Below, one piece after another: positions 1 through 41,319 of a DNA stretch of 50,731 nt (position 1 is its first letter; each line of letters opens with the position of its first letter). Made by a program: the position numbers and the translations under genes. Source of the DNA: Verrucomicrobiia bacterium (GTDB lineage: Bacteria > Verrucomicrobiota > Verrucomicrobiia > Verrucomicrobiales > Akkermansiaceae); assembly GCA_030432565.1 (NCBI GenBank), contig JAUIGV010000038.1, positions 1 through 50,731 on the forward strand, written 5' to 3'. Below the pieces are notes generated by a model. That model did no database searches. It was not told the DNA's origin and saw nothing but the letters and a program-made list of their open reading frames with translations.

Positions 1-43
1 GGCCAAGACGGTCAGACTTCAGAAGCGAACAATTCTCGTTAAT

Positions 44-80
44 ACGATCAGTCATATCCGGTGATCCTATGACTGATCGT
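44..80. repeat. Perfect 13-bp inverted repeat (hairpin)
   Basis: The arms ACGATCAGTCATA (44-56) and TATGACTGATCGT (68-80) are exact reverse complements around an 11-nt loop. The repeat sits just upstream of the transposase-like remnant. It could be a hairpin at the end of an old mobile element or a terminator for a gene left of the window. No T-run follows, so a classical rho-independent terminator is not supported. Confidence 0.7.
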
Positions 81-300
81 CCCTACAGCTCAATCATCGT
101 CGATAGGTGCTACGCGTGACGCTTACGATGAACGTGATGAAAATGCTGTTGAACTGCTCAAGACGAGCCGGGATGGCCGAGTGCGATACAGCCTAGAGCA
201 GAAGGAAAGGGTTCTCGATCTCTTTGAGCAGAGTGGAATGAGCGGCAGGGCCTTTGCTGAAGAGCATGGTAAAAATAAAAATATGCCGGGCATAGTTTGA
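73..300 (+). pseudogene. Transposase N-terminal remnant (helix-turn-helix)
   Basis: The frame is open from the TGA at 70-72 to a TGA at 298-300 but has no ATG, GTG or TTG start before the conserved part. It encodes RYSLEQKERVLDLFEQSG followed by MSGRAFAEEHG, which resembles the helix-turn-helix at the N-terminus of IS66/IS3-type transposase accessory proteins. Resemblance stops near position 270, where an AT-rich unrelated tail ends the frame. A second short frame starts at the ATG at 69 and stops at 118, so the original start may have been lost by a frameshift. I read it as a truncated, non-functional transposase gene; the family assignment is tentative. Confidence 0.45.
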
Positions 301-409
301 AGAGAAATGTCGTAACCTGTTCTAAGGGAGTGGTGTAAGGCGATTTGGCGTCGGGGGGACTCGAGCAGAATTTCATTCTGTGACCCAGAGACTGATGCGG
401 TAGCTCCCC

Positions 410-30174: not shown

Positions 30175-30903
30175 ATGAAGGTGAAGGAAGTCGTGCTTAG
30201 CATCCGGGTCCTTTTATTGTCTTGGGCAGGAAACGTCGGAGCGGATGAGGGGAAGCACCTTTTTATTCTTTCCGGTCAATCGAACATGGCGGGGATGGAT
30301 GAAAGCATTTCCTTCGTTCCCGCGGTGACCAAGGCATTTGGGAAAGAGCAGGTCATTGTGGTGAAGAGTGCCAACAGCGGGCAGTCGATTCGCAGCTGGG
30401 CCAAGACGAATCATGAAAACCCTCCACCCACGCGAGGACGGGTGCCGAAGGTGAGGGGAGAGCTTTATGATCCCTTGATTCAAAAAGTGAAGACGGCGAT
30501 CGAGGGGAAACAGCTTAAGACAGTGACCTTGGTCTGGATGCAGGGTGAATCCGATCTCAACAACACGGCTTACGATTCCTATCTCAAGGAGTTGCTGGAA
30601 CAGCTGCAGAAAGACCTGTCTTTTAAAGACATCAATATTGTCATCGGCCGGATTAGCGACAGTGGCCTCGACAATCCGAAGCGTCTTGAGGGGCGCCTCA
30701 ATATCAGGAAGGTTCAGAAAGATTTCGCCGAGGCTCATCCGAGGGGAGCGTGGGTGAATACCGATGACTTGAATGATCGCGAGGTGGACGGCAAAGTGAT
30801 TCACGATCTTCACTACACCAAGGCAGGGTATCGAACCCTGGGAGCGAGATTTGCAGAGAAGGCCATCGCCCTGATCAAACAGCTGTCTTCGAAAGCGAAG
30901 TAA
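30175..30903 (+). CDS. SASA-type SGNH carbohydrate esterase
   Basis: The 242-residue protein has an N-terminal Sec signal and the sialate O-acetylesterase (SASA, formerly DUF303) motifs: LSGQSNMAG with nucleophile Ser36, VWMQGESD, and the C-terminal DLHYTKAGY with the catalytic Asp/His. Such enzymes remove acetyl groups from sugars, including plant and algal glycans. It is the first of three SASA domains within about 7 kb (also 35147-36205 and the N-terminus of 36298-39342). It is followed by the BlaI operon after a gap of about 160 bp. Confidence 0.87.
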   Translation: MKVKEVVLSIRVLLLSWAGNVGADEGKHLFILSGQSNMAGMDESISFVPAVTKAFGKEQVIVVKSANSGQSIRSWAKTNHENPPPTRGRVPKVRGELYDPLIQKVKTAIEGKQLKTVTLVWMQGESDLNNTAYDSYLKELLEQLQKDLSFKDINIVIGRISDSGLDNPKRLEGRLNIRKVQKDFAEAHPRGAWVNTDDLNDREVDGKVIHDLHYTKAGYRTLGARFAEKAIALIKQLSSKAK

Positions 30904-30988
30904 GTGACTGACTTCGATTGGGGGAGTGGGGCTGGTCCGAAAAATCCAGTCTGACCCTTTCGTCATTTCCAGTTTTTAAAACTTCCTC

Positions 30989-31017
30989 TTGTCAACATAC
31001 GACGCTTGTCGTAAATC
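30989..31017 (+). promoter_or_regulatory. Promoter of the BlaI/M56 operon
   Basis: TTGTCA (30989-30994) and TAAATC (31012-31017) are spaced by 17 bp. The first BlaI-type operator lies in the spacer and the second covers the expected start site near 31024. This is a repressor-overlapped promoter of the bla/mec kind. Confidence 0.55.
30998..31013. promoter_or_regulatory. BlaI-type operator 1
   Basis: TACGAC and GTCGTA are separated by 4 bp (gctt), a perfect inverted repeat that closely follows the TACxxx/xxxGTA dyad bound by BlaI/MecI repressors. It lies between the -35 and -10. Confidence 0.8.
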
Positions 31018-31022
31018 AACAC

Positions 31023-31038
31023 TACGACAGTCGTCGTA
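31023..31038. promoter_or_regulatory. BlaI-type operator 2
   Basis: The same TACGAC-4-GTCGTA dyad (spacer agtc) is repeated 25 bp downstream of operator 1, that is, on nearly the same side of the helix after about 2.4 turns. It overlaps the predicted transcription start. Confidence 0.8.
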
Positions 31039-31066
31039 TATTGATCTTTCCCGTCACAACCTTCCC

Positions 31067-31474
31067 ATGGCTTCCAATCGAAAAAATTTAAACTCTTCAC
31101 CTCAGCCCACTGGTGCCGAGTTGGAAATTCTGCGAGTCTTGTGGGATCGCGGCGCGAGTACGGTGCGCGAAGTTCACGAATCATTTGGTCCAAAAAAGGA
31201 TGTTGGCTATACCACGACCCTAAAACTTTTGCAGAGAATGTCGGAGAAAGGACTGGTGGAGCGTGACCAGTCGCAACGATCGCATGTTTATCAGGCAGTG
31301 TTGAAGGAAGAGCCAACCCAGCGACGCATGGTGGCAGATTTGCTGGCGAAGGCCTTTGCCGGAAGTACGCCTTCGCTCGTGATGCAGGCCTTGAGCGCCA
31401 AGAAAGCAAGTAAGGCGGAACTTGCGGAGATTCGAAAGCTTCTCGATGAAATGGAGAAAGGGGCCGGGAAATGA
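31067..31474 (+). CDS. BlaI/MecI/CopY family repressor
   Basis: The 135-residue protein has the winged-helix N-terminal domain of BlaI (TGAELEILRVLWDRGASTVREV, GYTTTLKLLQRMSEKGLVER) and the C-terminal dimerisation helices (ADLLAKAFAGSTPSLVMQAL). I start it at ATG 31067, after the two operators; an upstream in-frame TTG (30989) is part of the -35. In the family the repressor is inactivated by the membrane protease encoded next, whose start overlaps its stop by 4 bp (ATGA). Confidence 0.92.
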   Translation: MASNRKNLNSSPQPTGAELEILRVLWDRGASTVREVHESFGPKKDVGYTTTLKLLQRMSEKGLVERDQSQRSHVYQAVLKEEPTQRRMVADLLAKAFAGSTPSLVMQALSAKKASKAELAEIRKLLDEMEKGAGK

Positions 31475-33954
31475 GCGATCCTGTGATCGAAGCCGCCGCG
31501 TGGACGATGCTCCATTTCTTTTGGCAGGGTGCTCTCATTGGAAGCGTTTATGGACTCGTCCTCATGTTTGTCCGCAAGCGACCTCAGGTGCGCTACCTTG
31601 CAGGTTGCCTGGCGATGTTGGTGATGCTTGGGGCGGTCGCGATGACTTTCGATTCTCGCTATGCCGGGCTTTCCAGGACCTCACCGATTGTTGAAGACTC
31701 TGTTGAGGAAGCTTTGACCGTGACTCATGCTCCTCTTGATTTTTCGAAATGTCTTCCGTGCCACATGATGCCGGGTGTCGATGGAAATCCCATCGCCACC
31801 TGGAGTCCAGGCGCAGGATGCCCGTCGGGGACCAGTGGATTGATTTCTGCGGGAGACATCGAAGGTGAGGTTTCTTCGATTGCTTTCGTCAAGGAAGAAT
31901 CCGGGATTGAAAAATCAGAACCCCAGTCTTGGATTTTTGATTGGATGGTGGGGATCTGGATCCTTGGGGTGGCCCTCTTGTCGCTACGGTTTTGCATTTC
32001 GTTGGGATTTGCGCAGCGACTGCGAAGTCGAATGAACGTGAACGCTCCGCTTCCTCTCGTGCAGTGTTTGAAGCGGATCGCTAATCAAATTGGGGTGAAT
32101 CGTTCGGTATCTCTATCTATTTCGGCGGCGGCCACGGTGCCGTCCGTGATTGGTTGGCTGCGACCAGTCATTCTTCTACCAGTGGCTTCGGTAGCGGGTC
32201 TTTCGAGGCCGCAGCTGGAAGCAGTTCTGGCTCATGAGCTGGCCCATGTTCGTCGTCACGATTACCTTGTGAATCTACTGCAACACGGGATCGAAACTCT
32301 TCTCTTCTTTCACCCCGTAGTCTGGTGGGTTTCGAGGAAGGTTCGTGAGGAACGTGAATTTTGTTGTGACGATATCGCGGCCCGGGTGGCGGGAAACACC
32401 ATTGATTACGCACGTGCCCTCGCCACCCTTGAGGAGCAACGCGCCGGCTTGATGACTTTGGAAGTGGCGGCAAGTGGTGGGTCCCTTCAGGCGCGTATTC
32501 GGCGCTTATGCGGAGTGGAGAATCCGCGACCTCTATCAGCTGCGGCGTTTCCGGCCCTCCTTTTCCTTCTTGCTGCCGTGATTCCTTTTGCAATGGCTCA
32601 TTCACAGGAAGCAATCGAGCCGAAGGCAGGGGAAGAAAGACTCGAAGAGCGTGCGCTGACGTCGGACGATGCGGAGCAGGGGCTCCGGCATTTACTCAAA
32701 AAAACGCCTGAACCGAACATCATGTTCAGCGACGTTGTGATGTTGGCGCGGGCTCTCGACAAAGACTCCATCATCGTTCTTCTCGATGAGATTGGTTTGC
32801 AACGTCGCGATGGCTACTGGGCCTGGGCTCGCTCGGCGATCTATGCCGAGTTGGCGAGCCGTGATCTCGATGCTGCGCTTGACCATTACCGGAGAAATTA
32901 TGGAGGTTATTTGGGAGTTCGTGAGCATATTCCTCATGCCATTTATGTGGGCTCGCGGCCGGAGGATCCATGGGCCGCACTCGTCTACCTTCGAAGTATT
33001 CCGGAAGACCCCCGCTTTCGGCTCACCGGGAGAGAGAGCGGAATCAACGGCCCGATGGTCTATACGAATGCCAATTGGTATCAGGAAAGCTATCGGCGTC
33101 TCTTCAAAAAGCTTGCCGCAATCGATCCGGAGCGTGCCTGGAAGGAACTACCCGGGCAGGCGGATGGGGTGGAGAAGCCTGTCGATCACAATCAATTGGC
33201 GAATGCCTATTATCCCTACCGGGACATGTTGGATGGATTTTTCTCAGGGCTGAAGGACGACAAAACCTTTCAGCATTACTTCGAGAGGCTTGGTCTAGTG
33301 AGGGGGCCTTATACCGATATGATCGCGATTCCAATTGTGAAAGCCTGGATGAACTTTGACATGACCACCGCGCTGGCTTGGGCACCGCCGGAGCGGACTC
33401 CTACGCTGGAGCACGGATCGATCATGGCCCATGGTGTCGATGGAAATGCCGTCACGAGCTGGGCCCGGGAGAATCCAAAAGCGGCACTTGAAGCTATTCG
33501 TGCCAACACTGTTCCAAAGTGGAAGTTTGGAATGGCGGGATCTCTCCTTCGGGGTGATCCCTCCCTTGCAAGCGAAGTGGTGGCCCTCATCGGCAACGAA
33601 CGCCCGATGAGCCAAGCTACCCGTCCAATACCTTGGAAAGGTTCCGATGGAAGAGTCATTCCCGGGATTAAGCTGCCTATTCCGGTTCCAGCGAAGGAGG
33701 AGAAACCGCCTTTTGTTTTCCATACTTTGAAGGGAGCCATGAACAGCAATGCCAGCCTTCAGGAATGGGATTCCTTTCCTGAACCGGGCCGAAACAACCG
33801 CCCGCTGGACTACCGAGCTCGATACGATGCCTTCCGCAAAGCCATCGCCAACGAACTGTTCTCAAAAGAGGAGCAGGCCCAGTTGCGAGCGCATTTGGAC
33901 GATGCCTTCCGCAAAGTTCTCAATCTCCCAAGCCCTAAAACCCACCAAGAATAA
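31471..33954 (+). CDS. BlaR1/MecR1-like M56 membrane metalloprotease with novel sensor domain
   Basis: The 827-residue protein has transmembrane segments at about 13-34, 42-60, 156-175 and 356-375. The M56 protease domain between the third and fourth holds the zinc motif HELAH at 255-259 and EREFCCDD at 294-301. In the first outward-facing loop (about 61-155, expected outside by BlaR1 topology) is a perfect heme c motif, CLPCH, at 94-98. The C-terminal ~450 residues, expected in the periplasm, are not a penicillin-binding domain; they are helical with repeats of the kind ARSAIYAELASRDLDAALDH, similar to TPR-like arrays. The protein is expected to sense a signal outside and destroy the BlaI-type repressor inside. 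The next gene begins within its stop codon (TAATG). Confidence 0.9.
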   Translation: MSDPVIEAAAWTMLHFFWQGALIGSVYGLVLMFVRKRPQVRYLAGCLAMLVMLGAVAMTFDSRYAGLSRTSPIVEDSVEEALTVTHAPLDFSKCLPCHMMPGVDGNPIATWSPGAGCPSGTSGLISAGDIEGEVSSIAFVKEESGIEKSEPQSWIFDWMVGIWILGVALLSLRFCISLGFAQRLRSRMNVNAPLPLVQCLKRIANQIGVNRSVSLSISAAATVPSVIGWLRPVILLPVASVAGLSRPQLEAVLAHELAHVRRHDYLVNLLQHGIETLLFFHPVVWWVSRKVREEREFCCDDIAARVAGNTIDYARALATLEEQRAGLMTLEVAASGGSLQARIRRLCGVENPRPLSAAAFPALLFLLAAVIPFAMAHSQEAIEPKAGEERLEERALTSDDAEQGLRHLLKKTPEPNIMFSDVVMLARALDKDSIIVLLDEIGLQRRDGYWAWARSAIYAELASRDLDAALDHYRRNYGGYLGVREHIPHAIYVGSRPEDPWAALVYLRSIPEDPRFRLTGRESGINGPMVYTNANWYQESYRRLFKKLAAIDPERAWKELPGQADGVEKPVDHNQLANAYYPYRDMLDGFFSGLKDDKTFQHYFERLGLVRGPYTDMIAIPIVKAWMNFDMTTALAWAPPERTPTLEHGSIMAHGVDGNAVTSWARENPKAALEAIRANTVPKWKFGMAGSLLRGDPSLASEVVALIGNERPMSQATRPIPWKGSDGRVIPGIKLPIPVPAKEEKPPFVFHTLKGAMNSNASLQEWDSFPEPGRNNRPLDYRARYDAFRKAIANELFSKEEQAQLRAHLDDAFRKVLNLPSPKTHQE

Positions 33955-34475
33955 TGACGACCAAACAGACTAAAACACCCCATCGAGTTTCGCTGGCAAT
34001 TGCACTTCTCGCCACTTGCGCGACGAATGCCGAAAGTTTTGCTTTTCCCTCTCCGGAGCCAATTCGAGTGGGTAGGATCGAGGTGGATCCATTGACGGGA
34101 TTGGTAACCCTACAATGGAATTCGCAGATCGGAAGCAGGTATGCCATTGAGGAAACCACTCAATTTGCAATCGGGTGGCAAGAGAGTCGAAAAGACATTG
34201 AGGCAAACTCTCCTCAAACGACTCTCTCGTTTCTTCCCCAAGGTTCAAGCGACGGAGCAAGAGCCAAGTTTTTCCGTATTCGAATGGTGGAGGAATTCGG
34301 AAATGTCGAGGTGAATACGAAAGTGACTTCCGAAAAGAAGGCCGTTGAAACGACAGATTATAGAATTCATGAGACTTATGCCGAAGCGAAGTCACAAAGT
34401 GGTAAAAGATCTTCCAGTTTGAATACGGCGAGAGATCAAACCGCTTTGTTGTTGGGCGCAAATGTCTTTGGATGA
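33954..34475 (+). CDS. Small secreted protein, third gene of the BlaI/M56 operon
   Basis: I do not recognise a named family. The 173 residues have a Sec signal (LAIALLATCATNAES) and a short beta-rich segment (LVTLQWNSQIGSRYAIEET, AKFFRIRM) like the C-terminal module of verrucomicrobial LamG-type proteins. The remainder is Lys/Thr/Ser-rich and hydrophilic. It shares one base with the M56 stop (TAATG), so translation is coupled and the product likely belongs to the same system, perhaps as a ligand or partner of the sensor. The TGA at 34473 is followed by a similar frame, so the gene may once have been longer. Confidence 0.65.
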   Translation: MTTKQTKTPHRVSLAIALLATCATNAESFAFPSPEPIRVGRIEVDPLTGLVTLQWNSQIGSRYAIEETTQFAIGWQESRKDIEANSPQTTLSFLPQGSSDGARAKFFRIRMVEEFGNVEVNTKVTSEKKAVETTDYRIHETYAEAKSQSGKRSSSLNTARDQTALLLGANVFG

Positions 34476-36218: not shown

Positions 36219-36258
36219 AAGGGTGGGTCCGCGAGCTTGCCGGCCCACCCTTTCTTTG
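36219..36258 (+). terminator. Rho-independent terminator after the esterase gene
   Basis: AAGGGTGGG (36219-36227) pairs with CCCACCCTT (36244-36252), a 9-bp GC-rich stem, followed by TCTTTGT. It lies 13 bp after the stop codon at 36205. Confidence 0.75.
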
Positions 36259-36297
36259 TACAAACAGACCGGAATCTTCGAACCAAGGAATGAACCA

Positions 36298-39200
36298 ATG
36301 AAAATGATGAGATCCACATTGCTCGTGGTTTGGATGATGTTAATCGCGATCCAAACTCCGGTTGTGGCGGTGGATCTCGGCAAGAGACCCGTCAAGTTGT
36401 TCCTGCTCGGTGGCCAGTCCAATATGGATGGTTGTGGTCGTGGGGAGGAACTCCCGGCGATGTTTCGTTCGCACCCGAAGAACGTCGTCACCTGGGACAA
36501 CCAAAAGAAATTATGGGTCGAGTTGACCAAGGATTCCATGGCAACGGCCCGCCGCCAGCAATTCGGCCCCGAGATGGCTTTTGCGCATCGCCTCGCCAAG
36601 ACTTATCCGAATCACACCATCGCGATCTCCAAGACCTCGGCCGGCGGCACGAAGCTCCACACCCAGTGGGTTCCGGGGAAGGGGATGTATGAAAGGTTCA
36701 TCCGTAATTTTCGCAATGCGAGCGCGCAACTCAAAGACTCGGGTCTTGAATATGAAGTGGCCGGGATGCTTTGGATGCAGGGCGAATCCGATTCCGAGAC
36801 GGTGGAGATGGCCGGGGCTTATGAGGAGAACCTGAAGCTCCTGATCGCCGATGTGCGAAAGCAAACCGGGAATGCCAAGCTTCCGTTCGTGATGGGGCGG
36901 ATCTCTTCGAGCCTGTTGAAAAAGACTCCCTGGAATTTCGACCAGGCCAGAACGGTGCAGGCCGCACAAGAAGCCGTGGCCGCACAGGATGAGCAGGTTC
37001 ACCTCATTAACACCGACAAGCTTGGCACGCGAAAAGACAATACGCACTTCGACACCAAGGCCCAATTAACCCTGGGAGGCCAGATGGCCGGGATTATGAT
37101 TCGAGTTTTGGCGGGCGAGAAAAAGTTGCCGAGAAAGGCGAACTACATTCGACCCGAAATTAATGGGCCGGTTCTCGATCCGGTCGAGGCCATCTCGAAG
37201 ATGCATGTGGCCGATGGATTTGAGCTCAACCTCTTCGCTGCGGAGCCCCGGGTCATCAATCCGGTCGTGATGCGCTTTGATCACCTCGGGCGTCTCTGGG
37301 TGGTCGAGATGGTGGGTTACATGACTGATCTCAGTGGAAGCAAGGAACTCGAAAAGCTTGGGCGCATCAGCATTTTGGAAGACACGACCGGCGACGGCAA
37401 GATGAACAAGTCCAAGGTCTTTTTAGACGAACTTGTTGAACCCCGGGCCATCGCTTTTCACAAGGATGGCATTTTGTGGGCCGATTATCAGAAGCTTTAT
37501 CACACTTTGGTTGGTCCCGATGACGAGCCGGGCGAGACCGTGGTGGTGGACGAGGGGTATTCGACCGGGCATAGTGTGGAGCACAAACCAAACGGTTTGG
37601 TCCGGGCTCTCGACAACTGGTATTACAACGCCAAAAGCAATTATCGCTACAAGGAGGTTGATGGCAGGTGGCTCATTGAGAAGACCGAGTTTCGCGGACA
37701 ATTTGGGATGTCCGCCGACAACCACGGGCGGCTCTACCATGGCCAGCAAAACACCCTTATGAGAGCGGAGGTTTTCAGTCCGAACTTTTTTCTGGGAAAC
37801 GCGAATCTGAATTTGAGGATGTCGCAACTTGCGACCGAGTATAATGAGATCCAGCCAAATTGCTTTAACATTAAAGCCTGTGAGCGGCCTGTTTTCCCGG
37901 TGAGGCGTTCCCGGGATATCCGGGATGGCTATCATGAGGCCTTGGATTGTGACATCGATGAAGAAGGCTTCGCCTTCCGGTGTACCTCGGCATGCGGCCA
38001 CTTCTTCTATCGTGGAAACCAATTCGGAGAGGGCGTGAATGCCTTCGTGGCGGATCCCGGAATGCACTTTGTGAAGGCGATCAAGATTCGGCGGGAAGAA
38101 GGGATTCCCTTCGGAAAAAATGTTTATGCGGACCAGGAAATCGTGGCCAGCCCCGACACACGATTTCGGCCGGTGGATCTTCAATCGGCTCCGGATGGCT
38201 CTCTTTATATCGCCGACATGTATCACGGCATTAACCAGCATCGCTTTTTCATGAGTGCGCATTTGCGGGCCTTCATTGAAAAGAACAACCTCGAGACCCC
38301 GCCGGACCTTGGGCGGATTTACCGGCTCTCCGCCAAGGAAAAAAAACCGGCTGCCTGGAAGCCCTTTACGAATCCAAACGTTTCCGAATTGGCGACAGCC
38401 CTGGCCAGTGACAACCCGTGGATGAGAGACACCGCGCAGCGGATTCTCGTCGACCGCAAACCGGCGGGCGCCAAAGAAGCGATCGAATCGGTTTATCGGA
38501 AAAGCACTTCTTCACTGGGTAAAATTCATGCCTTGTGGACGCTGGAAGGAATCGGAAAACTCACCGCAAAGCATGTTCTGGAGGCTTTGTCGGAGAAGGA
38601 CCGCGATCTCGTCATGCACGCCGCCCGGCTTTCGTGGCGTTTGGAAAATTCCGATGATCTGATGCATGCGTTGATTGAAGCCACTCCCGAAACCTTCGAT
38701 GGATCTTCGTATTACCTGTACCAACGACTGGCAAATTTCAGCCAGGCCATGGCACAAGAATTCTTGATGAAGGCTTACGTGAAATGGACGGATAAACCGT
38801 TTCTGGTTCCGGCTCTTTTGAGCGGCTCCGGAGATCATCTTGAATCATGGATTTCCAAAATCCCCAATCCCAGAAAACAAGGCGCCCTTCGTGAAGTTTA
38901 CTTGAAAAGCAAAAAGGTGAACCGCGACCTGTCGCCGGAATTACAGGATGATTATCTGAAGAGTTATCATCGTGGTAAGAAGATCTACCTCGTGAATTGT
39001 TTCTCCTGTCACGGGAAGGATGGTCGTGGTTTGCTCGGCATGGGTCCGCCGCTCGCCAAGTCCGACTGGGTCACTGGCGACCCCGATGTCATCACTAAAA
39101 TCGTTCTGAAAGGCATGCAGGGTGCGATTGAGGTGTCGGGCAAAAAGTATCAACCCAAGATCCCGATGCTGGCGTTTGAAGCGATCATGACGGATGAGCA

Positions 39201-39342
39201 GATCGCCGATGTCAGCACTTACATCCGAAATAGCTGGGGAAACAAAGCGTCTCCGGTTGGGGGAAATTCGGTGCGCGAAGTTCGTGAGAAAGTCTCTGAA
39301 CGAGAAAGCCATTTTCAGGAATCGGATTTTCGGGCAGAGTAG
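36298..39342 (+). CDS. Esterase-dehydrogenase-cytochrome c triple fusion
   Basis: The start at ATG 36298 has AAGGA upstream and opens a Sec signal (RSTLLVVWMMLIAIQTPVVA). The 1014 residues contain a SASA esterase (about 30-275; LLGGQSNMDG with Ser41, LWMQGESDSE), then a PVC-type membrane-bound dehydrogenase propeller (about 295-700; FAAEPRVINPVVMRFDHLGR, LQSAPDGSLYIADMYH), a helical HEAT-like segment (about 700-880) and a C-terminal cytochrome c domain with CFSCH at 901-905. One polypeptide thus combines a deacetylase, an oxidase and its electron acceptor. Substrate unknown; acetylated sugars are the natural guess. The next gene begins 5 bp after its stop. Confidence 0.9.
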   Translation: MKMMRSTLLVVWMMLIAIQTPVVAVDLGKRPVKLFLLGGQSNMDGCGRGEELPAMFRSHPKNVVTWDNQKKLWVELTKDSMATARRQQFGPEMAFAHRLAKTYPNHTIAISKTSAGGTKLHTQWVPGKGMYERFIRNFRNASAQLKDSGLEYEVAGMLWMQGESDSETVEMAGAYEENLKLLIADVRKQTGNAKLPFVMGRISSSLLKKTPWNFDQARTVQAAQEAVAAQDEQVHLINTDKLGTRKDNTHFDTKAQLTLGGQMAGIMIRVLAGEKKLPRKANYIRPEINGPVLDPVEAISKMHVADGFELNLFAAEPRVINPVVMRFDHLGRLWVVEMVGYMTDLSGSKELEKLGRISILEDTTGDGKMNKSKVFLDELVEPRAIAFHKDGILWADYQKLYHTLVGPDDEPGETVVVDEGYSTGHSVEHKPNGLVRALDNWYYNAKSNYRYKEVDGRWLIEKTEFRGQFGMSADNHGRLYHGQQNTLMRAEVFSPNFFLGNANLNLRMSQLATEYNEIQPNCFNIKACERPVFPVRRSRDIRDGYHEALDCDIDEEGFAFRCTSACGHFFYRGNQFGEGVNAFVADPGMHFVKAIKIRREEGIPFGKNVYADQEIVASPDTRFRPVDLQSAPDGSLYIADMYHGINQHRFFMSAHLRAFIEKNNLETPPDLGRIYRLSAKEKKPAAWKPFTNPNVSELATALASDNPWMRDTAQRILVDRKPAGAKEAIESVYRKSTSSLGKIHALWTLEGIGKLTAKHVLEALSEKDRDLVMHAARLSWRLENSDDLMHALIEATPETFDGSSYYLYQRLANFSQAMAQEFLMKAYVKWTDKPFLVPALLSGSGDHLESWISKIPNPRKQGALREVYLKSKKVNRDLSPELQDDYLKSYHRGKKIYLVNCFSCHGKDGRGLLGMGPPLAKSDWVTGDPDVITKIVLKGMQGAIEVSGKKYQPKIPMLAFEAIMTDEQIADVSTYIRNSWGNKASPVGGNSVREVREKVSERESHFQESDFRAE

Positions 39343-40698: not shown

Positions 40699-41319
40699 AT
40701 GAATTTCCAAAATATTGTCTCTCTCCTTGTAGGTGCCTCTTTCGTCACATCTTGTCAGGACGCCGAAAAGAAAGTGGAAACCGGGTCCACTGAGGCCTTT
40801 ACCGAGGGCGAGCGCCAGCAATTCTCCGGTAAAGGAAAAGAGGCGGTTGGAGATTTGGCCGGGACATTGGGCTCGCAACTCAAGGCGGCGATGGCAAGCG
40901 GCGGGCCGGTGGCTGCCGTCAAGGTCTGCAAGGAAGTCGCCCAACCGCTTACGAACTCAACCGGAGCAAAGCGCGATGGAGTGACGATCGGACGAACCGC
41001 GCTAAAGGTTAGAAATCCCCAAAATGCCCCTGATGACATTGACAGGGAAGTTTTGGAGGCGTGGGAGGCGCTTAAGGGAAAGGGCGATGCCCTTCCGGGC
41101 CACGAACTGGTTCGCCTCGATGACGATACCGTTCGATTCTACAAGCCCATCATCCTGCAAGAGGTCTGCCTCAATTGTCATGGCTCTGACGAGCAACTCC
41201 TACCTGAATTGAAGAAGACACTCGATGAACTCTATCCCGGGGATCAGGCTCGCGGTTTTCAGGTAGGAGATCTCCGGGGAGTCTTCCGGGTCGAGATGGA
41301 AGTCAGCTCAGCCGAGTGA
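40699..41319 (+). CDS. DUF3365 (Tll0287-like) heme-binding lipoprotein
   Basis: The 206 residues start with a lipoprotein signal (lipobox VTSC, Cys19). The rest fits the DUF3365/Tll0287-like domain: an all-around fold with the heme c motif CLNCH at 157-161 and the segment YPGDQARGFQVGDLRGVFRVE at the end. Such domains bind heme and often act as redox or gas sensors on kinases; here it stands alone on a lipid anchor, so it may be a small periplasmic electron carrier or heme store. It is codirectional with the oxidoreductase after 112 bp and converges with a DUF1501 gene. Confidence 0.88.
   Translation: MNFQNIVSLLVGASFVTSCQDAEKKVETGSTEAFTEGERQQFSGKGKEAVGDLAGTLGSQLKAAMASGGPVAAVKVCKEVAQPLTNSTGAKRDGVTIGRTALKVRNPQNAPDDIDREVLEAWEALKGKGDALPGHELVRLDDDTVRFYKPIILQEVCLNCHGSDEQLLPELKKTLDELYPGDQARGFQVGDLRGVFRVEMEVSSAE

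What the first reader, a model, noticed from the sequence alone, without database searches (positions are those of the whole stretch)
31471..33954. BlaR1-like protease with a heme c motif in its outer loop and a new sensor domain
CLPCH (residues 94-98) is a perfect heme-attachment motif in the first outward loop, and the C-terminal ~450 residues are a helical repeat domain, not a beta-lactam sensor. In a region full of c-type cytochromes, this suggests a redox- or heme-responsive version of the BlaR1/BlaI switch. The CXXCH could also be chance.
Basis: partly seen in the sequence, partly recalled or inferred. Interest (0 to 1): 0.65.

Follow-up and report, generated by a model that had tools for sequence, protein, structure and literature searches.

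The report
Membrane protease switch with heme-attachment motif
A bacterial on-switch related to the one that senses penicillin carries, in the outer loop that passes on the signal, a short conserved motif of the kind to which cells normally attach heme, so it may switch genes in response to heme or redox state rather than to antibiotics; that heme is really attached has not been tested.

Summary
The 827-aa ORF is an intact M56 (BlaR1-type) membrane protease with CLPCH at 94-98, in the extracytoplasmic loop between TM2 and TM3. This corresponds to EL1, the loop that carries the signal in S. aureus BlaR1 (model vs 8exs: Z 19.3). The motif is not chance. All three members found (window; two paralogues in one other genome of the genus) keep H-x7-C-x2-C-H in a loop that otherwise diverged, while 0 of 130 other distinct M56 ORFs held have CXXCH there. 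All three lie in the same operon layout: two TACGACnnnnGTCGTA sites, BlaI, protease, small exported-looking protein. Best reading: a BlaI/BlaR1-type switch gated by a metal or redox group in EL1, most likely covalent heme c. Heme itself is unproven: no cytochrome family matches the loop, and controls with shuffled flanks hit cytochromes about as well. Zinc or a disulfide remain rivals. Known kind of system, new variant, so far seen in two genomes of one genus.

The parts
30998..31013 (.). Operator 1, TACGACGCTTGTCGTA, just downstream of a conserved TTGTCA
   Evidence: Exact pattern; paired sites at the same place in both other copies. The sigma-70 scan finds no promoter in 30900-31120.
31023..31038 (.). 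Operator 2, TACGACAGTCGTCGTA, 9 bp after operator 1
   Evidence: spacing 9, 9 and 10 bp in the three copies.
31067..31474 (+). BlaI-type repressor, 135 aa, no cysteine; ends in a 4-base ATGA overlap with the protease gene
   Evidence: PF03965 Penicillinase_R E 4.7e-28; 81% and 66% identical to the repressors of the other two copies; cysteine count 0.
31471..33954 (+). M56 (BlaR1-type) membrane metalloprotease, 827 aa
   Evidence: PF05569 E 2.3e-30; model vs BlaR1 8exs Z 19.3, 251 residues aligned.
31681..31920 (+). Extracytoplasmic loop (EL1 equivalent), residues 71-150
   Evidence: Between predicted helices 38-70 and 151-186; 5 K/R against 14 D/E in residues 61-150; low confidence, no fold predicted.
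31726..31728 (+). His86, the only other invariant likely metal ligand (His, Cys or Met) in the loop (H-x7-CxxCH)
   Evidence: Invariant in 3 of 3.
31750..31764 (+). CLPCH (residues 94-98), motif of the heme c attachment type
   Evidence: Kept as CLPCH, CRPCH and CRSCH in 3 of 3; absent there in 130 of 130 other distinct M56 ORFs.
32233..32247 (+). HELAH zinc protease motif, residues 255-259
   Evidence: H255, E256 and H259 invariant in the 26-sequence alignment, as are E296 and D300.
32536..32604 (+). TM4, residues 356-378
   Evidence: Model and hydropathy.
32656..33951 (+). C-terminal extracytoplasmic all-helical region, residues ~396-827
   Evidence: All-helical model, modest confidence; distant relatives are helical-repeat proteins with an N-terminal hydrophobic segment; mostly missing in the G021:C111 copy.
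33954..34475 (+). Small protein, 173 aa, with an N-terminal hydrophobic stretch like an export signal (by eye); third gene of the operon
   Evidence: Start overlaps the protease stop by one base; homologues at the same place in both other copies, 40% and 30% identity; no significant Pfam hit.

Best explanation
A BlaI/BlaR1-type repressor-protease switch in which the signal enters through a chemical group on the extracytoplasmic loop EL1. BlaI binds two palindromes in front of its own operon. When the state of the EL1 group changes, EL1 moves TM3 and the cytoplasmic zinc protease domain becomes able to cleave BlaI, which frees the operon (repressor, protease, small exported-looking protein). 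The group is most likely a covalent heme c on C94/C97 with H98 as one ligand and perhaps H86 as the other, made by the cell's cytochrome c synthase; the signal would be redox state, NO or another small ligand, or heme supply. Shown from sequence: gene order, paired palindromes, protease motif, conservation of H-x7-CxxCH; by model: BlaR1 fold and topology. Inferred from BlaR1: operator binding, cleavage of BlaI, signalling through EL1. Not shown: heme.
For: Motif conserved in 3 of 3 members while EL1 is only 26/82, 13/61 and 13/59 identical in the three pairs; 8 of 59 ungapped EL1 columns are invariant, among them H86, F91, C94, C97 and H98. 0 of 130 other distinct M56 ORFs have it. The motif lies in the loop that in BlaR1 is EL1, the signalling loop (PMC9834060, passages; fold match). 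The own genome holds two cytochrome c assembly family proteins (PF01578 over cut-off; best NCBIfam model CcsB, under its cut-off), and purified bacterial CcsBA attaches heme to 9- and 11-residue CXXCH peptides, needing both thiols and the His but no helix (PMC8112865, passages). The operon layout and operators are conserved; the only exact operator sites in G021 are the two pairs in front of its two copies, and 2 of 3 in the own genome are this pair. The repressor has no cysteine, so it is unlikely to be the redox or metal sensor itself.
Against: Only three sequences from two genomes of one genus. No Pfam family matches the loop in a scan up to E 10. A profile of the motif region does hit cytochromes c (best E 0.0084; 12 of 24 hits), but three profiles with shuffled flanks and the same CXXCH do so too (best cytochrome E 3.4, 0.011 and 0.0016; c-heme proteins 3 of 3, 6 of 11 and 3 of 5 hits), so this adds nothing beyond the motif. 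For the C129 loop alone the best solved-structure hit is a zinc ribosomal protein, ahead of a cytochrome c3, both insignificant. The loop is predicted disordered (pLDDT about 40), with no evident heme pocket. The ResB half of a CcsBA synthase was not seen by Pfam in the 702-aa protein and was not searched for elsewhere. No target gene beyond the operon itself was established.
Confidence: 0.5

Rival explanations
1. EL1 holds a metal site without heme: H86, C94, C97 and H98 bind zinc, copper or iron, and metal binding or loss gates the protease.
For: All four possible ligands are invariant in 3 of 3. Zinc proteins (PINCH, L40e, eS27) appear among the weak hits of the motif region, L40e being the first of two for the C129 loop. 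The repressor superfamily includes the copper repressor CopY; TIGR02698 matches below its cut-off.
Against: In an extracytoplasmic loop of a cell with cytochrome c assembly proteins a CXXCH is a possible substrate for heme attachment. The repressor lacks the Cys-X-Cys metal motif of CopY. No metal transporter family among the 25 window ORFs scanned (not all ORFs of the window).
Confidence: 0.2
2. C94 and C97 form a reversible disulfide: a thiol redox switch in EL1, with H98 and H86 tuning it.
For: CXXC is kept in 3 of 3; extracytoplasmic cysteine pairs are readily oxidised (general knowledge).
Against: It does not by itself explain the invariance of H98 and H86, and an exact CXXCH could compete for heme attachment.
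Confidence: 0.15
3. The C-terminal helical-repeat domain is the real sensor (for a protein or polymer outside the membrane) and the CXXCH has a merely structural role.
For: The domain takes the place of the penicillin sensor of BlaR1 and is 57% identical between the window and the C129 copy, more conserved than EL1 (26/82).
Against: The G021:C111 copy keeps the motif, the operon layout and the operators but only about the first 70 residues of this domain.
Confidence: 0.12
4. The CXXCH is chance or a neutral remnant.
For: Few sequences; another genome of the genus has an M56 protein with a CXXCH in its C-terminal tail that 0 of 5 relatives (one cut by its contig end) keep, so such motifs can come and go.
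Against: Expected about 1e-4 per loop; invariant in 3 of 3 at 44-59% overall identity to the window protein, in the most divergent part shared by all three. If invariant columns were placed at random, C94, C97 and H98 would all be invariant with a chance of about 0.002 (ignores that Cys and His change slowly in general).
Confidence: 0.03

Closest known systems
BlaR1/MecR1 with BlaI/MecI (Staphylococcus, Bacillus), structures 8exp-8ext
   Same: Protease family, membrane topology and fold, adjacent BlaI-type repressor, palindromes in front of the operon, an extracellular loop EL1 between TM2 and TM3.
   Different: No penicillin-binding sensor domain found, no beta-lactamase or PBP gene in the operon, EL1 longer (about 80 against 41 residues) and carrying H-x7-CxxCH, helical-repeat C-terminus, different palindrome (TACGACnnnnGTCGTA; BlaI/MecI and CopY sites are given as TACA/TGTA in PMC7253601, passages).
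sCache_heme (DUF3365/Tll0287, PF11845) sensors
   Same: An extracytoplasmic sensor thought to have gained a short CXXCH segment; a preprint reports c-type heme and NO binding (PMC12889525: abstract and the section on the origin of the motif).
   Different: Different scaffold, a Cache domain. No PF11845 match in this protein.
CopY/CopR copper repressors
   Same: Repressor of the same superfamily, palindromic operators.
   Different: CopY senses metal itself through Cys-X-Cys (PMC7253601, passages); this repressor has no cysteine and sits beside a protease gene.
Helical-repeat proteins of the same bacterial family (G082:C105, G051:C54, G350:C94)
   Same: Distant similarity to the C-terminal region (best E per genome 1.7e-8, 1.8e-7 and 7.7e-4).
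   Different: Not fused to a protease in the frames seen, and no CXXCH in those frames.

Membership tests
BlaR1/MecR1 beta-lactam sensor | M56 zinc protease domain with HExxH | tested here: met
   PF05569 E 2.3e-30; H255, E256, H259, E296 and D300 invariant in 26 sequences.
BlaR1/MecR1 beta-lactam sensor | BlaR1 membrane fold with EL1 between TM2 and TM3 | tested here: met
   Model aligned to 8exs over 9..337, Z 19.3, rmsd 3.8, 251 residues.
BlaR1/MecR1 beta-lactam sensor | Adjacent BlaI/MecI-type repressor | tested here: met
   PF03965 E 4.7e-28 in the gene directly upstream.
BlaR1/MecR1 beta-lactam sensor | C-terminal penicillin-binding sensor domain | tested here: not met
   No Pfam match in residues 377-827 in a scan up to E 10; all-helical model; NCBIfam blaR1_generic 75.7 bits against a cut-off of 400, best stretch 152-348.
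BlaR1/MecR1 beta-lactam sensor | Cleavage of the repressor by the protease | not testable with these tools
   Inferred from BlaR1 (PMC9834060, passages).
c-type cytochrome | CXXCH in an exported segment | tested here: met
   CLPCH 94-98 between TM2 and TM3.
c-type cytochrome | Recognisable cytochrome c domain | tested here: not met
   No Pfam hit of the loop in a scan up to E 10 for 3 of 3 members; motif-region hits no better than shuffled-flank controls.
c-type cytochrome | Covalently bound heme | not testable with these tools
   Needs expression and spectroscopy.
sCache_heme (PF11845) | Cache domain match | tested here: not met
   Not among the families matching the protein at E<=1.
CopY copper repressor (for the BlaI-like gene) | C-terminal Cys-X-Cys | tested here: not met
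   No cysteine in the 135-aa repressor.
CopY copper repressor (for the BlaI-like gene) | Curated CopY model over cut-off | tested here: not met
   TIGR02698 57.3 bits against 121.95.

The most novel reading that the evidence does not exclude
EL1 is itself a substrate of the cytochrome c synthase, and its heme-loaded or heme-free state is the signal: the switch reports whether the cell can still make c-type cytochromes, or the redox state of the heme it received. It would be a heme c-gated protease that destroys a repressor, in a bacterium rich in c-type cytochromes.
Probability: 0.15. Interest if true: 0.85.

Novelty: new variant of a known kind. Interest (0 to 1): 0.55.

Why it matters
BlaR1-type proteases are widespread beyond antibiotic resistance, but what most of them sense is unknown (general knowledge). 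Here the candidate sensing group is a defined four-residue site on the very loop that carries the signal in BlaR1, and the output is a defined operator pair, so the question of what is sensed becomes directly testable. If heme is attached, it would to my knowledge be the first heme c-dependent repressor-cleaving protease. Full-text searches of the held open papers for BlaR1 with heme c and CXXCH and for BlaR1, metalloprotease, heme and redox sensing returned no paper; BlaR1, M56 and Verrucomicrobi returned two, seen as a listing only. Most subscription papers are not in that library.

Tried and rejected
Cytochrome homology of the loop: a Pfam scan to E 10 gave nothing for any of the three loops. 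A profile of 32 residues around the motif hit cytochromes c best (single sequences: window 6 of 6 hits cytochromes, C129 1 of 2 and not the best, C111 15 of 17), but three controls with the same CXXCH and permuted flanking columns also hit cytochromes, so I do not use these hits as evidence for heme.

Regulon: exact operator sites in the own genome are this pair plus one at C21:313-328, 84 bases before a reading frame for a C-5 cytosine DNA methylase (PF00145 E 2.9e-52). With up to one mismatch there are 8 sites on the forward strand against 10 for the reversed control pattern, and G021 has no exact site other than its two pairs, so I regard the C21 site as probably chance. No target gene outside the operon is claimed.

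More family members: N-terminal profile A2 in 386 genomes of the order, 387 of the phylum, 260 of the family and 384 of the class, overlapping sets; beyond the window and G021 the matches end at profile position 91 or earlier, before the motif. In each genome only part of the first-look candidates was scored, and not every match was opened: one search lists 18 places and gave loci for 10. Viral contigs: 82 pattern matches, none confirmed. Plasmids: 17 records with distant matches, not examined for the motif. Genome contigs: of 75 loci, 74 have no CXXCH before HExxH (rows counted by hand; the attempted recount returned no rows); the one with it is L032. Its contig name number, contig length and tblastn alignment are those of G021:C129, so I count it as the same gene (inference).

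The M56 count: 158 reading frames matched the M56 profile among the 172 loci held; 1 was dropped for lack of the HExxH pattern used, 157 kept, 133 distinct by the 105 residues ending at HExxH; 3 have CXXCH within 230 residues before it. The set is dominated by Burkholderiales and Verrucomicrobia/Planctomycetes relatives, so '0 of 130' is no survey of all M56 proteins. L069 has a CXXCH only in the frame upstream of its likely start.

Fold of the C-terminal region: no solved-structure match at E<=0.001; VIA rows for this part (Z about 5.5-7) are within the range of common helical-repeat arrangements. Inconclusive, not evidence of a new fold.
Full report
What is there. The window is contig C53 of a 5.9-Mb genome; the one close relative among the named genome records is an uncultured Verrucomicrobiales MAG. 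ORF 31471-33954 (+) encodes an intact 827-aa protein. Pfam finds the BlaR1 peptidase M56 domain at 155-326 (E 2.3e-30). The AlphaFold2 model (mean pLDDT 64.9; ten-residue means 77-96 in residues 1-70 and 151-320) shows helices 3-33, 38-70, 151-186 and 356-378 around the protease domain. Against solved structures, BlaR1 of S. aureus ranks first by Foldseek (8ext, E 3.4e-5) and by VIA-align (8exs, Z 19.3, 251 residues aligned over 9..337; the best other protein is ZMPSTE24 at 12.7). CLPCH, residues 94-98 (31750-31764), thus lies in the loop that corresponds to EL1 of BlaR1. In BlaR1, EL1 (residues 56-96, between alpha2 and alpha3) occupies the sensor groove, and its displacement is proposed to start the signal (PMC9834060, passages read).

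Is the motif more than chance? At local amino-acid frequencies about 1e-4 CXXCH are expected in such a loop. Two further members were found, both in genome G021 of the same genus: C129 (59% identity over the full length) with CRPCH and C111 (44% over residues 1-468) with CRSCH. EL1 is otherwise poorly conserved (26/82, 13/61 and 13/59 identical residues in the three pairs), yet 8 of 59 ungapped columns are invariant, among them H86, F91, C94, C97 and H98. Of 133 distinct M56 reading frames among the 172 loci held at that point, 3 have CXXCH before HExxH, exactly these three. A search with the N-terminal profile in 386, 387, 260 and 384 genomes of order, phylum, family and class (overlapping sets) gave no further member, with the limits told under Tried and rejected. 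So the motif is a fixed feature of a small, apparently rare subfamily.

The operon. Upstream is a BlaI-type repressor (31067-31474, 135 aa, PF03965 E 4.7e-28) whose stop overlaps the protease start. Before it are two perfect palindromes TACGACnnnnGTCGTA, 9 bp apart, next to a conserved TTGTCA. The promoter scan finds no consensus sigma-70 promoter there. Downstream, overlapping by one base, is a 173-aa protein with an export-signal-like N-terminus (by eye; 33954-34475). All three copies have the same layout: paired palindromes, repressor (81% and 66% identical to the window's), protease, small protein (40% and 30% identical). In G021 the only exact palindrome sites are the two pairs in front of its two copies, and in the own genome 2 of 3 are this pair. 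The circuit looks self-contained: the switch would control its own operon, with the small protein as the only candidate output found. The repressor has no cysteine, so it lacks the Cys-X-Cys metal site of CopY.

The C-terminal region. Residues ~396-827 are all-helical in the model (mean pLDDT 60.5), match no Pfam family in a scan up to E 10 and no solved structure at E<=0.001. In 386 genomes of the order, 5 match this region: the own genome, G021 and three others. In those three the matching frames have an N-terminal hydrophobic segment and helical-repeat-like sequence, stand alone, and hold no CXXCH (segment and repeats judged by eye). The C111 copy ends soon after the first ~70 residues of this region but keeps motif, operon layout and palindromes.

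How it most likely works. By analogy with BlaR1, a change in EL1 moves TM3 and releases the protease to cleave BlaI, which frees the operon. The H-x7-CxxCH group is placed to be the trigger. Heme c is the most likely cofactor because the motif is exact, lies outside the membrane, and the genome holds two cytochrome c assembly proteins (PF01578 over cut-off; TIGR03144 CcsB at E 1e-34 and 9e-18, both under that model's own cut-off); and because purified bacterial CcsBA needs both thiols and the His of a CXXCH but not the neighbouring helix, and modifies 9- and 11-residue peptides (PMC8112865, passages read), so the lack of a cytochrome fold need not prevent attachment. A precedent for a sensor gaining a short CXXCH segment is the sCache_heme family (PMC12889525, abstract and one section read).

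What speaks against. There are only three sequences, from one genus. No cytochrome family matches the loop. Hits of the motif region to cytochromes (best E 0.0084) are matched by shuffled-flank controls (best cytochrome E 0.0016, 0.011 and 3.4). The model shows no pocket in EL1 (pLDDT about 40). The ResB partner of the synthase was not seen nor searched for separately. Zinc or copper binding by H86/C94/C97/H98, or a disulfide, cannot be excluded. A second M56 protein of the genus, in G008, has CSACH in its outer C-terminal tail, but 0 of 5 relatives at about 40% identity (one cut by its contig end) share that motif; this is either a separate case of the same idea or a warning that such motifs can arise without being kept.

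Verdict. The protein probably works like a BlaR1 but does not qualify as a beta-lactam sensor. It is a new variant of a known kind of switch, and whether heme is bound is the one experiment that decides its interest.

Noticed in passing
window 40699-41319 (+): Stand-alone Tll0287-like protein (PF11845, E 4.3e-22) with CLNCH: a match to the family that a 2026 preprint describes as c-type heme Cache domains.
   Followed up: partly
L022:1182-2507 (-), genome G008: Another BlaI-like/M56 pair of the same genus whose protease ends in an outer tail with CSACH, followed by a helical-repeat-like protein (by eye); five relatives at about 40% identity, one cut by its contig end, have a different tail without CXXCH.
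   Followed up: partly
window 36223-39342 (+); L164:7121-10615 (-): Large proteins joining an esterase (SASA in the window, GDSL in G021), DUF7133 and an electron-carrier domain: cytochrome c in the window, a plastocyanin-type copper domain in G021, where it lies directly upstream of the operon.
   Followed up: no
L107:313-328, genome contig C21: A third exact operator-like palindrome, 84 bases before a reading frame for a C-5 cytosine DNA methylase; probably chance.
   Followed up: partly
window 31774-31803 and 33433-33462: The stretch after the CXXCH (GVDGNPIATW) and one in the C-terminal domain (GVDGNAVTSW) are similar and share their first 15 bases; not tested against chance.
   Followed up: no
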